NCBI RefSeq assembly: GCF_000722875.1
Contig: NZ_JFHR01000011.1
Coordinates: forward strand, 1 to 64,000
DNA length: 64,000 bases
Direction: 5' to 3'
Source of the DNA: Sphingobium chlorophenolicum
GTDB lineage: Bacteria; Pseudomonadota; Alphaproteobacteria; Sphingomonadales; Sphingomonadaceae
Under the pieces are notes generated by a model that was not told the origin of the DNA, ran no database searches, and saw only the letters and a list, made by a program, of their open reading frames with translations. Made by a program: the position numbers and the translations under genes. This document shows, one piece after another, positions 19,838 through 26,525 of this stretch (position 1 is its first letter; each line of letters starts with the position of its first letter).

Positions 19838-20728
19838 TCACGCTTCCTCACCCTCTGGCATGACGTCCACCATCACCTGAACATTCTGTCCGGAGCCGCC
19901 CACGAACAGCCCGTCCATCGGCGCGACATCGGCATAGTCCCGCCCCATGGCGACGAACAGATGCCCATCGCCCGCGATCACCCCGTTGGTCGGATCGAAT
20001 CCGATCCACTCTCGCGTTGGCCCGCACCACAGCATGACCCAGGCATGCATCGCGTCCGCGCCCACCAGCCGCGCCATGCCCGGCGGCGGATCGGTGCGCA
20101 GATAGCCGCTGACATAGGCGGCGGGCAGCCCGAACCAGCGCAAGGCCGCCACCATCACATGGGCAAAATCCTGGCACACCCCATGCCGCGCTGAAAAGGC
20201 CTCCGCCACCGGCGTCGCCGCATCGGTCGCCCCACTGACATAGGCGAATTCATTCCTGATCCGCCGCGCCAGTTCCAGTGCCGCTTCCACGATGGACCGG
20301 TGCGGGACAAGCAGATCGCCCGCCCATGCCCCGATCTCCGCCACCAGGGGCACGCGCGGCGAGGCATGGAGGTAATGCGCGGGCCCCGCCGGTCCCATGT
20401 CCCGCGCCGCCAGCGCTGCCTCCGCCACCGCGCCGACGGTCGGATCGTCTGGCTGCGGCTCTATGGGCGGGCCGCCCTGCACCCCAGTGCGAAAGCTGCT
20501 TTCGATGCTGATCCGATGCAGCGGACTGTCGATCTCGATGCGCGCCACATGCACCGGCCACGCCCCCGGCCGCGATTCGATGGAGGCGGGCGCGGGATCG
20601 ACCGCCAGATGATAATCCGACGTCCACTGCCCCGGCCATGGCGCGGGCCGCAGCCGCAGGTTGAACCGCGCCAACTGCACCGGCGCATCATAATGCACGA
20701 TGGTCTGGTGCCGAATGCGGTAGATCAT
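19838..20728 (-). CDS. Transglutaminase-like protein (third gene of ATP-grasp operon)
   Basis: The 296-residue cytoplasmic protein has an N-terminal beta-sandwich (transglutaminase N-domain, start [23 protein letters not shown]) and a transglutaminase core. The catalytic triad is visible as Cys in HGVCQDFAHV, His in ADAMHAWVML and Asp in IGFDPTNG. Such enzymes act as cysteine proteases or acyl transferases on Gln or peptide bonds. Its start overlaps the stop of the ATP-grasp/alpha-E gene by 4 bp (ATGA), so it is the last gene of a translationally coupled operon. The family often accompanies circularly permuted ATP-grasp ligases. Its substrate is unknown. Confidence 0.9.
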   Translation of the reverse strand: MIYRIRHQTIVHYDAPVQLARFNLRLRPAPWPGQWTSDYHLAVDPAPASIESRPGAWPVHVARIEIDSPLHRISIESSFRTGVQGGPPIEPQPDDPTVGAVAEAALAARDMGPAGPAHYLHASPRVPLVAEIGAWAGDLLVPHRSIVEAALELARRIRNEFAYVSGATDAATPVAEAFSARHGVCQDFAHVMVAALRWFGLPAAYVSGYLRTDPPPGMARLVGADAMHAWVMLWCGPTREWIGFDPTNGVIAGDGHLFVAMGRDYADVAPMDGLFVGGSGQNVQVMVDVMPEGEEA

Positions 20729-23199
20729 GACAGCAGGCTGACGCCCTCGCTCCTCTCCTTGCGCCGTTGTAGGAAATAGCGCTGGCCGATGGCGTCCGAC
20801 AACTCCAGCAACCGGCTTTCCGCGTCCGCCAGATCGGCCACGCTCAATATATCCCCCGTCATCGGCGCCAGCCGCGCCGCCAGCATCGCCGCCAGCCTTT
20901 GCGGTTCCTCCGGCATGCCGTCGCCATGCAGCGTCGGCAGCGCGGCGACATGCTCCGCCAGCCGTTGGGCCTGATAGACGATGGAGCGCGGATTTTGCGG
21001 CTCCAGCGCCACCAGATCGCGCACCGGCGCCAAAGCAGGCCCGGCCAGATAGCGGTTGCGATAGCTGATCTGACTGTCGTTAAGGTCCAGCAGCACGGTC
21101 AGGTCATCCGCCGAAGCCCTATCGCCCCCGAACAGCATGGCGAGGCGGCAGCCGTTGATCGCCCGCTCCATCCGCCGTCCCATATCGTGGAAGCGCCACC
21201 CCTCGGTCCGCCCCATATTCTCCGCCGCCAGTCCCGAAAGCGCCGAAATCCGCTCGATCATCCGGGAGGACGCCTCCAGCAGCGTCTCCGTCACCCCGCC
21301 ATCGAAATCGGGCAGGGGCAATCGCACCAGCCGCCAATAATCCACCGCTAGCCGGTCGCGCAGCCCTTCGCCGATCCCCGCCACCGCCGCCAGCAGCGCC
21401 CGCACGCTACCCGGTTGCGCGCCGTCGCCCAGCGCCTGCGCGCACAGCGGCCCGACCGCCCCCGCAGTCCCCGAAATCGCGCCCCACAGCGCCAACTGCC
21501 CCATCAGCCGGTCCATGGTGGGCGACCCGACCGCCGGACCCAGATCGGCCTCGATCGACCCCCCGACAATCGCCCGGATCACCCGCGCCGTCATCTCCGT
21601 GCGTTCGATATAGCGCCCCAGCCAATAGAGATTGTCCGCCGCCTTGGCGGGCAGCATGCCGCCCACCCGCCGGATCGCCGGAGCCATCGCCGAAGCCAGC
21701 CCGTCCGCGGGCGCCGGCCGCGCATCGACCACGCACATGTCCGCCGACAGATCGCCTTCGCCCATCAGCGCGGCGCGAATGTCGCCATGCGCCGCCAGCC
21801 GGGTAAAGGCGCCCGGCATGATCCGCCACTGGCCCAGCTCATCCCGCGCCACGAACACGCGCAGAGTGAAGGGCAGGGCGGTAAGCTGCCCATCGACGAT
21901 GGCAGGCGTGGTCGACAGCCGCACCACCTCCTGCCCGACATAGTCCATCGGCCGCCGCGCCATGGCCTCCAGCAACGCCGCCCGCTGCCCCGCATCCATC
22001 GCCGATCCGGGCAGGAAGCGCGTACCCGTCAATCCCGCCACATCCCGGTCGAATGCCGACCCGACCACCAATTCGTCCATCGCATCGGCCACATGCGCCC
22101 GCTCGGCCGCCTGCCCGCACCACCATGTCGCGATATTGGGCAGGATCAGCTCCGCGCCCAGCAAATCCCGCGCCAACCCCGGCAGGAAAGCCGCCATCGC
22201 CCGCGATTCGATCACGCCCACGCCCGGCCAGTTAGCCAGCATCAACCCGCCCTTCACGCAGGCGTCGAACAGGTCCGGCACGCCGATGCGCGATTCCGCG
22301 TCGAACGCCAGCGGATCGATGAAGCGGCTGTCCATCCAGCGCCACAGCCCGTCGACCCGCTTCAACCCCTGGATCGTCCGCACGAACAATTGGCCGTCGG
22401 ACACGATCAGATCCTCGCCCTCGACCAGCAACAGCCCCAGATAGCGCGCCAGATGCGCCTGCTCGGCATAGCTCTGGTTGAAACGCCCCGGCGACAGCAG
22501 GCCGATGCGCGGATCGCTCCGCTCGCAATCTGCCGCCAGCCCCCGGCGCAAATCGCTCAGAAACGGCGCCAGCCGCCGCGCATTGAGCGCCCCCAGCAGA
22601 TCGCCGGTCGCCCGCGACAGCGCCAGCCGGTTCTCCAGCGCATAGCCCACGCCCACCGGCGTGCGCACCCGGTCGGCCAGCACGCGCCATTCGCCGTCCG
22701 GCCCCCGCGCCAGATCGGCGGCGTAGAAATGGATGAAATGCCCATGCGGCGGCGGTGCGCCGGTCATGACCCGCCAATGATGCGGGCTGCCGGTGATGAC
22801 GTTCGCGGGCAGCTTCCCGTCGCGCACCAGCGATTGCGTGCTGTAGATGTCGCTGATGACCCGCTCCAGCAACTGCGCCCGCTGGACCAGTCCCTGCTCG
22901 ATATGGGTCCATTCCCGCGCCCCGATCAGCAGCGGAATGGGGCTGAGTGGCCAGGGCCTTTCCTGCTGGTCCCCGGTCAGCCGAAAGGCCAGGCCCAGGT
23001 CGACCGCCTGCCGCTCGACATTACCGGCCAGCATAGCCGGATCGCCCTGCGCCTGCGCCGACAGACGGTCCAGCATCGCCCGCCAGTGCCCGGCCATCTC
23101 CGCGCTCGCCCCGGCGAACAGGTCGCCCTCCGGCGCCCGCGCCAGATAGGCGTCGGCCCAACCGGCGGCTTCCATGACAGGGGTGGCGGTCTTCGTCAT
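20725..23199 (-). CDS. Circularly permuted ATP-grasp ligase fused to an alpha-E domain
   Basis: The 824-residue protein has two parts. Residues about 80-480 are a circularly permuted ATP-grasp domain with family blocks [53 protein letters not shown] and [15 protein letters not shown]. Residues about 500-815 form an all-helical alpha-E domain that opens with [23 protein letters not shown]-grasp enzymes make amide bonds from a carboxylate and an amine using ATP. The alpha-E domain is of unknown role but always associates with such ligases. It overlaps both flanking transglutaminase genes by 4 bp. Comparative-genomic work has predicted this set to make or attach a peptide; to my knowledge no product is established. 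Confidence 0.9.
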
Positions 23200-26100: not shown

Positions 26101-26525
26101 TCGATCGTCCGCCCCTCAAAGCCCCGATGTTCCTCCACCAGAGCCTCGAACAGCGGCCCCTGATCCTCCAGATCGAAATAGGCGGCCAGGTCGGTGCGAA
26201 GCTGCTCGTCATAGGCGAAGGGATAATCCTCCGCATAAGGCTCCACGAAGAAATCGAAGGGATTGATGATGTCGAGATCCGCCAGCAGATCGACCTCGAC
26301 CGAAAAGCGGTCGACCGGATCGGGAAAGACGATCCGCGCCAGCCAATTGCCGTGCGGGTCCTGTTGCCAGTTCAGGAAATGCCCCGGCGGGTCGATCTTG
26401 AGGGCATAGTTGGGGATTTTCGTCCGGCTGTGCGGCGCGGGCCGCAACCGGATCACCTGCGGCCCAAGCCGGATCGGGCGGCTGTAGCGGTAGGACGTCA
26501 GATGGTGGAGCGCGGCCTTCAGCAT
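23196..26525 (-). CDS. Large transglutaminase-like protein with C-terminal DUF2126
   Basis: I place the start at the ATG at 26525 ([20 protein letters not shown]), which matches the N-domain of the smaller paralogue at 19838. A frame 12 codons longer exists. The roughly 1109-residue protein has a transglutaminase core at about 150-290 with Cys in [10 protein letters not shown], His in [10 protein letters not shown] and Asp in WVALDATSG. The rest (about 300-1100) is DUF2126, with conserved stretches such as [11 protein letters not shown] and [10 protein letters not shown], which resembles an amidoligase or glutamine-synthetase-like fold. It is the first gene of the operon and may carry both a peptide-cleaving or transferring step and a ligase step. 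The substrate is unknown. Confidence 0.9.

What the first reader, a model, noticed from the sequence alone, without database searches (positions are those of the whole stretch)
19838..26525. Coupled operon of two transglutaminases and a circularly permuted ATP-grasp/alpha-E protein
Three genes overlap by 4 bp each: DUF2126-transglutaminase, CP-ATP-grasp with alpha-E, and a second transglutaminase with an intact Cys-His-Asp triad. Ligase plus peptidase-like steps predict a ribosome-independent peptide product or a reversible protein tag. Comparative genomics has grouped such genes as amidoligase systems; I know of no established product. This is the best candidate here for an undescribed pathway.
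Basis: partly seen in the sequence, partly recalled or inferred. Interest (0 to 1): 0.7.

Follow-up and report, generated by a model that had tools for sequence, protein, structure and literature searches.

The report
Peptide-ligase operon with dead ATP-grasp
Three overlapping genes form a widespread but uncharacterised bacterial peptide-ligase cassette; its ATP-grasp enzyme lacks the ATP-handling residues in every copy examined, so the likelier ligase is its neighbour, a domain that resembles glutamine synthetase.

Summary
On the minus strand lie TG-DUF2126 (26525-23196), CP-ATP-grasp/Alpha-E (23199-20725) and TG (20728-19838), with two 4-bp overlaps and intact Cys-His-Asp triads. The cassette is common: DUF2126 occurs in 75 of 249 sampled genomes of the phylum and 68 of those 75 loci carry the fused CP-Alpha-E gene. 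It is related to the predicted ATP-grasp/Alpha-E/transglutaminase 'amidoligase' systems; I found no known product.

The fused ATP-grasp has lost its Mg/ATP residues: 0 of 138 fused proteins keep the E-x-N pair or the glycine loop, while 36 of 36 stand-alone paralogues keep them, as do 70 of 70 further ones. The gene is still under purifying selection, so it looks like a conserved pseudoenzyme.

All 78 whole genomes in which I located the fused gene also hold an intact stand-alone ATP-grasp; here it sits in the Anbu (proteasome-homologue) operon. Substrate and product remain unknown.

The parts
23196..26525 (-). TG-DUF2126 gene (P0003; 1109 aa from the ATG): N-terminal bacterial transglutaminase-like domain + C-terminal DUF2126 putative amidoligase domain
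   Evidence: model m03826c0ff3c4, pLDDT 80.2
25791..26510 (-). transglutaminase-like domain of P0003, triad C191/H240/D256
   Evidence: triad kept in 154 of 154; matches 3isr, Z 22.8
23211..25703 (-). DUF2126 domain, glutamine-synthetase-like model, proposed ATP-dependent carboxylate-amine ligase; candidate metal/substrate residues E343, E665, E688, H735, E837, E857, R859 (P0003 numbering from the TTG)
20725..23199 (-). CP_ATPgrasp_2 / Alpha-E fusion (P0002; 824 aa), predicted pseudo-ATP-grasp
21793..22935 (-). CP-ATP-grasp domain of P0002
22669..22677 (-). degenerate Mg-ligand motif: A175-D176-R177 where stand-alone paralogues have E-D-N
   Evidence: roles of the equivalent residues in TryS
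20773..21654 (-). Alpha-E helical domain of P0002, motifs R529/E532/R533 and E678/R679 kept
19838..20728 (-). stand-alone transglutaminase-like protein (P0001; 296 aa), triad C185/H228/D245

Best explanation
The operon encodes the accessory half of a (by eye cytoplasmic) amidoligase system whose other half is the stand-alone ATP-grasp/Alpha-E pair found elsewhere in the same genome (here in the Anbu operon). Shown from sequence: a conserved cassette, a degenerate nucleotide site in the fused ATP-grasp, intact TG triads, and co-occurrence with an intact stand-alone ATP-grasp. Inferred: (1) DUF2126, a domain that models like glutamine synthetase, is the active ligase of this operon and activates a carboxylate with ATP to form an amide; (2) the fused pseudo-ATP-grasp/Alpha-E no longer uses ATP and serves as a docking or substrate-recognition subunit, probably next to the active ATP-grasp/Alpha-E; (3) the two transglutaminase-like proteins are cysteine peptidases or acyl-transferases that trim, transfer or remove the product. 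The likeliest product class is a small ribosome-independent peptide or peptide conjugate, perhaps linked to nitrogen limitation, because the related Anbu operon of Pseudomonas putida responds to the nitrogen source.
For: Active-site loss: of 138 distinct fused copies 0 keep an acid at 155 with N/D at 157, 0 keep the GGYG loop, 3 keep K316 and 13 keep K363, against 36 of 36 stand-alone copies with E155, N157, K363 and GGYG. In one search, 70 of 70 further stand-alone copies are intact and 0 of 20 fused; 14 fused rows agree (partly repeat earlier genes). The equivalents in trypanothione synthetase bind both Mg ions and the ATP phosphates (PMC3581523, passages). The rest is constrained: 42 of 124 columns near-invariant (>=97%) in stand-alone copies are kept at >=90%; Alpha-E ER motifs are kept at 99-100%; dN/dS is 0.07-0.29 against three Sphingobium relatives. 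Fused and stand-alone groups are split by one branch, SH-aLRT 100. DUF2126: 42 of the 50 rows are glutamine synthetases or close relatives, Z 8.4-9.6, 208-281 residues aligned; seven candidate residues are kept in 149-155 of 156 rows. Partnership: 75 of 75 DUF2126 genomes have Alpha-E, against 70 of the other 174, and 75 of 75 hold a stand-alone ATP-grasp with intact motifs (29, 46). The fused gene also occurs in 10 of 21 genomes with Alpha-E but neither DUF2126 nor Anbu, each with an intact stand-alone copy. L273 is one run CP > AE > fused CP-AE > TG. Nitrogen: PP_2685 and PP_2688 are 4.44 and 3.99 log2 higher on nitrate than on ammonium (PMC8050072, passage with table).
Against: No biochemistry for this operon. 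Loss of ligands is a sequence inference; the acid at 142 and D156 remain, so an unusual nucleotide site is not excluded, and the mapping to GspS rests on a profile alignment with a poor overall score. The DUF2126 match to glutamine synthetase is only Z about 9, where the tool warns of a background of 7-8; Foldseek gives E 0.008 or worse and profile comparison is not significant (probability 0.85%). The second Glu of the first GS metal motif is Thr here. The nitrogen data concern the related Anbu operon, and I found no sigma-54 site at this operon. Co-occurrence is inflated by shared ancestry. DUF2126 also occurs without an adjacent fused gene (7 of 75 and 8 of 80 loci). Pull-downs found no specific interaction among the Yersinia bercovieri Anbu-operon proteins (PMC6376114, passage), which weakens the stable-complex part.
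Confidence: 0.6

Rival explanations
1. One reading: the operon's own ATP-grasp is an active peptide ligase and the transglutaminases act as peptidases on its product.
For: The fold is that of GSH synthetase and GspS. The stand-alone ATP-grasp of the Yersinia bercovieri Anbu operon releases phosphate from ATP (PMC6376114, abstract and passages).
Against: E-x-N and the glycine loop are lost in all, and K316 and K363 in most, of 138 fused copies, the window's included; further rows agree.
Confidence: 0.1
2. Degradation rather than synthesis: a proteolytic module with a scaffold (two cysteine peptidases, sometimes Anbu and Peptidase_Mx), in which DUF2126 tags substrates for cleavage.
For: Other peptidases cluster with the system: Anbu lies in 12 of 75 DUF2126 stretches; Peptidase_Mx is in 34 of 75 DUF2126 genomes and in 15 of 155 DUF2126 stretches (2 of the 15 Pfam-checked).
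Against: No AAA unfoldase showed up among Pfam scans of representatives of the recurrent neighbour clusters; Yersinia, Pseudomonas and another Anbu cleaved none of the tested peptides (PMC6376114, passage).
Confidence: 0.2
3. The fused gene is a decaying relic with no role.
For: Its ATP site is broken and the fused group is the more variable one.
Against: CP-AE dN/dS 0.13, 0.23 and 0.21 against three Sphingobium relatives; open frames in 138 distinct fused proteins; positions conserved anew in the fused group, such as R177, W360 and G362. Against the more distant L134 dN/dS is 0.48, with dS near saturation.
Confidence: 0.03

Closest known systems
Anbu operon (CP-ATP-grasp, Alpha-E, transglutaminase, Anbu), predicted peptide-synthesis or tagging system (Iyer et al. 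2009, seen only as cited)
   Same: Homologous CP-ATP-grasp, Alpha-E and TG; present in the same genome at C15 (L003: CP, AE, TG, Anbu); 31 of 75 DUF2126 stretches also hold a stand-alone CP and/or AE.
   Different: Here CP and Alpha-E are fused, the CP active site is lost, DUF2126 is added and Anbu is absent from the operon.
Glutathionylspermidine/trypanothione synthetase and eukaryotic-type glutathione synthetase (ATP-grasp)
   Same: Fold of P0002 residues 23-500: 3n6x Z 43.0, GSH synthetases Z 21.7-25.4, GspS and TryS Z 19.6-21.9.
   Different: The Mg-binding E-x-N pair, ATP lysines and glycine loop are missing in P0002.
Glutamine synthetase and other GS-fold ligases
   Same: The DUF2126 model aligns with glutamine synthetases, Z 8.4-9.6; conserved E, H and E-x-R residues resemble GS motifs (motif reading recalled; alignment weak).
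   Different: No significant sequence similarity; fused to a TG domain; Thr (T345) in place of the second Glu of the first GS metal motif.
RimK/RimB and RloABC (ATP-grasp + aspartic peptidase, with or without an inactive membrane transglutaminase)
   Same: Ligase-plus-peptidase logic (PMC12239564, passages).
   Different: RimK-type ATP-grasp, membrane-bound inactive TG, aspartic peptidase; Alpha-E and DUF2126 do not appear in the passages I read.

Membership tests
ATP-grasp/Alpha-E/TG amidoligase system (Iyer 2009 type) | CP-ATP-grasp with Alpha-E and a bacterial transglutaminase in one operon | tested here: met
ATP-grasp/Alpha-E/TG amidoligase system (Iyer 2009 type) | catalytically competent ATP-grasp in the operon | tested here: not met
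   A, R, R and G in place of E155, N157, K316 and K363, and GGYG lost (sequence only); an intact copy lies elsewhere in the genome (C15)
Anbu operon | Anbu gene beside ATP-grasp, Alpha-E and TG | tested here: not met
   one Anbu match in the genome, at C15 and not in this operon
Functional ATP-grasp ligase (GspS/TryS/GSH synthetase type) | fold | tested here: met
Functional ATP-grasp ligase (GspS/TryS/GSH synthetase type) | E-x-N Mg ligands, ATP lysines, glycine loop | tested here: not met
   residue mapping by profile alignment with GSP_synth (weak score but the motifs line up) and TryS roles
GS-fold ligase (DUF2126) | GS fold | tested here: inconclusive
   Z 8.4-9.6 in 42 of 50 rows, but Foldseek E 0.008 or worse and profile comparison not significant
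GS-fold ligase (DUF2126) | conserved acidic/His metal residues | tested here: inconclusive
   E343, E665, E688, H735, E837, E857 and R859 are kept in 149-155 of 156 rows, but their equivalence to GS residues is inferred
GS-fold ligase (DUF2126) | ATP-dependent amide formation | not testable with these tools
   needs enzymology
Transglutaminase-like cysteine peptidase superfamily | Cys-His-Asp triad | tested here: met
   119 of 121 stand-alone TG frames under 360 aa keep Cys, 121 of 121 keep His and Asp; 154 of 154 TG-DUF2126 keep all three; longer mis-started TG frames were left out

The most novel reading that the evidence does not exclude
A two-ligase peptide pathway in which a conserved, catalytically dead ATP-grasp/Alpha-E protein, found in at least four bacterial phyla, acts as the obligate scaffold or specificity subunit for an intact stand-alone ATP-grasp/Alpha-E pair, with the glutamine-synthetase-like DUF2126 as a second ligase and TG cysteine peptidases as editors. 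A pseudoenzyme would then sit at the centre of an uncharacterised peptide or protein-tagging system.
Probability: 0.35. Interest if true: 0.75.

Novelty: new member of a known kind. Interest (0 to 1): 0.48.

Why it matters
ATP-grasp/Alpha-E/transglutaminase systems are widespread (Alpha-E in 145 of 249 sampled genomes) and I found no known product. The productive assays would be DUF2126 as ligase and P0002 as partner of the stand-alone ATP-grasp. That makes a long-standing unknown testable with purified proteins.

Tried and rejected
Sigma-54 (nitrogen) promoter at the operon: no site in 26525-26800; the window has 64 matches with up to 2 mismatches against 81 expected by chance, and the four exact sites all lie at 40713-46837. 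Sigma-70 promoter and terminator scans at 26400-26800: none. Rfam: only a tRNA at 8505-8575. NCBIfam: no family for the three operon proteins and two C15 proteins. A conserved substrate gene beside the cassette: 1727 neighbour genes of 155 stretches were clustered and 32 clusters in 5 or more stretches listed. Besides the system's own genes, Alpha-E and Anbu, I scanned one representative of each of the other 27 clusters (two for Peptidase_Mx) with Pfam. Peptidase_Mx looked related. The rest are diverse (branched-chain amino-acid ABC transporter in 18 stretches, LysR in 17, Tex, acyl-CoA dehydrogenase and others), four had no family, and I did not pursue them. The rule that picked genes by codon GC can miss or mis-start genes. 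Literature: 'DUF2126' in 0 held papers; COG/DUF403 terms 0; M. tuberculosis locus names gave one paper, seen in the listing only. Profile comparisons of DUF2126 with glutamine synthetase and of CP-ATP-grasp with GSP_synth were not significant; only motif columns lined up. A review table lists a marine metagenomic clone with ATP-grasp/Alpha-E/TG/protease genes as antinematode, citing a thesis (PMC7764037, passages); too indirect to use. An inactive-transglutaminase vesicle gene (PMC12096838, passages) is a different protein type.
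Full report
Observation. Both junctions are ATGA overlaps of 4 bp. Pfam gives DUF2126 ('Putative amidoligase enzyme'), CP_ATPgrasp_2 plus Alpha-E, and the transglutaminase core. I saw no obvious N-terminal signal sequence in the translations (by eye only).

How widespread. In a sample of 249 genomes of the phylum (window's genome included) DUF2126 occurs in 75, Alpha-E in 145, an Anbu homologue in 99 and CP_ATPgrasp_2 in 147, 145 of these over the cut-off. In the 75 DUF2126 stretches (window plus 74) 68 hold the fused CP-Alpha-E gene: 55 in the window's order TG-DUF2126 > CP-Alpha-E > TG on one strand and 13 rearranged. 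The 7 without it are L045, L056 and L057 (DUF2126 beside Anbu), L050, the divergent L093, and L106 and L107 at contig edges. G168, the genome of L050, has a second CP match in an 870-codon frame on another contig. In 80 named loci 72 hold the fused gene; of the 8 misses at least L150, L164, L167, L182 and L202 have several kilobases downstream without it. In the window's genus 42 of 61 genomes have DUF2126. In the phylum sample none of the 13 other genomes of the family does, though named Novosphingobium loci do, so it is patchy.

The ATP-grasp is degenerate. I aligned 68 fused and 35 stand-alone CP domains, then 138 and 36 distinct ones. Matches under 330 residues were dropped (three: L059, L073, L107). 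In C15 numbering E155, N157, K316, K363 and G369-G-Y-G are invariant in the 36 stand-alone copies. Of the 138 fused copies 0 have an acid at 155 together with N/D at 157, 0 have GGYG, 3 have K316 and 13 have K363. The window reads A175-D176-R177, R333 and G380 at the equivalent places. In trypanothione synthetase the D/E/N residues hold the two Mg ions and the lysines touch the ATP phosphates (PMC3581523, passages). The mapping rests on a profile alignment with GSP_synth that lines up D, E-x-N and K but scores poorly overall. Fourteen fused rows, among them Granulicella (Acidobacteriota) and Tsukamurella (Actinomycetota), agree: one keeps E155, none N157. In one search, 70 of 70 stand-alone and 0 of 20 fused rows are intact. 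partly repeat genes already counted.

It is not a dead gene. Of 124 columns near-invariant (97% or more) in stand-alone copies, 42 are kept at 90% or more in fused copies, 39 are intermediate and 43 are lost. For Alpha-E, of 24 such columns (95% or more) 12 are kept, 5 intermediate and 7 lost; the ER motifs are kept at 99-100%. dN/dS of the window against three Sphingobium relatives is 0.07-0.29 over the three genes (CP-AE 0.13, 0.23, 0.21); against L134 it is 0.48 for CP-AE with dS near saturation. On a tree of 106 rows (36 stand-alone, 70 of the 138 fused) one branch separates the groups, SH-aLRT 100, length 1.47 (quick method; root not tested).

DUF2126 as ligase. The model of the whole protein (pLDDT 80.2, pTM 0.77) matches 3isr over the TG domain (Z 22.8). 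For about residues 292-945 it matches glutamine synthetases: 42 of the 50 rows, Z 8.4-9.6, 208-281 aligned. Foldseek alone gives them E 0.008 or worse, and the tool warns that Z 7-8 is a common background. Glutamate, histidine and E-x-R residues resembling GS metal motifs (motifs recalled) are kept in 149-155 of 156 rows; the misses are gaps but for one C at E665. Profile comparison with GS is not significant. Pfam's description points the same way. I call this likely, not shown.

One system with the stand-alone ATP-grasp. All 75 DUF2126 genomes have Alpha-E, against 70 of the 174 others (Fisher p 6e-23, not corrected for ancestry). All 75 hold a stand-alone ATP-grasp with intact motifs: 29 of them were rows, and the other 46 were fetched for the check and read. 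Stand-alone CP and/or Alpha-E genes lie in 31 of the 75 DUF2126 stretches and Anbu in 12. Within Alpha-E genomes DUF2126 shows no association with Anbu (48, 27, 49, 21; p 0.48). Of 21 genomes with Alpha-E but neither DUF2126 nor Anbu, 10 have a fused CP-Alpha-E, each with an intact stand-alone copy; TG lies beside the fused gene in 9 of those 10. In L273 the intact CP, Alpha-E, the fused gene and TG form one run. So in the 78 whole genomes where I located the fused gene (68 + 10) an intact relative was present, while the reverse is common. The named loci and the plasmid records were not tested for this as whole genomes. In two of those records the fused gene and TG lie without DUF2126 in the 6 kb on either side.

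A further recurrent peptidase. Peptidase_Mx (PF15887) is in 46 of 249 genomes, 34 of them DUF2126 genomes and 45 of them Alpha-E genomes. It lies in 15 of 155 DUF2126 stretches (2 of the 15 confirmed with Pfam). It is absent from the window's genome.

Literature. The Anbu operon is described as a predicted peptide-synthesis or tagging system (PMC5666114 and PMC6376114, passages). Its ATP-grasp from Yersinia bercovieri releases phosphate from ATP, Anbu cleaved no tested substrate, and pull-downs showed no specific partner. In P. putida the Anbu and CP-ATP-grasp genes are higher on nitrate than on ammonium (PMC8050072, passage with table). Marine metagenomes tie these domains to urea metabolism (PMC3597751, passage). 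No held paper names DUF2126. Iyer et al. 2009 is not held, so I cannot say whether the loss in the fused ATP-grasp was already noted; that I saw it in no paper rests on the searches, of which I read only listings and the passages cited here.

Mechanism. Most likely DUF2126 forms an amide with ATP, the fused protein docks or selects substrate together with the intact ATP-grasp/Alpha-E, and the TG proteins trim or transfer. The anatomy, the residue loss, the constraint and the co-occurrence are shown from sequence; the chemistry and the product are inferred.

Noticed in passing
window 40713-40727 and 44028-44042 (minus), 45476-45490 and 46823-46837 (plus): Four exact sigma-54 type sites (TGGCAC-N5-TTGC) lie in what looks like the flagellar gene region (by eye from the ORF starts); not tested further.
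   Followed up: no
window 29665-30720 (+) and 31555-32691 (-): Two genes with PF13480 (GNAT-type acetyltransferase) near the operon, and a beta-lactamase-family gene at 28098-29168.
   Followed up: no
window 26649-27080 (-): A DUF488 gene lies 123 bp upstream of the first gene's ATG on the same strand; it did not appear among the recurrent neighbours of the cassette.
   Followed up: no
L062:14906-16429 and 14 other DUF2126 stretches: A zinc-ribbon putative metallopeptidase (PF15887 + PF10005) recurs near the DUF2126 cassette; 45 of its 46 genomes have Alpha-E.
   Followed up: partly
L273:5414-11177: Intact CP-ATP-grasp, Alpha-E, fused pseudo-CP-Alpha-E and TG in a single run without DUF2126.
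   Followed up: partly
L233 and L268-L271 (Sphingomonas plasmid record and same-family genomes): Fused CP-Alpha-E plus TG without DUF2126 beside it, suggesting that DUF2126 is a separable module.
   Followed up: partly
L071:1814-3595 and its cluster (18 of 155 stretches): Branched-chain amino-acid type ABC transporter genes recur near the cassette; may only follow genus.
   Followed up: no
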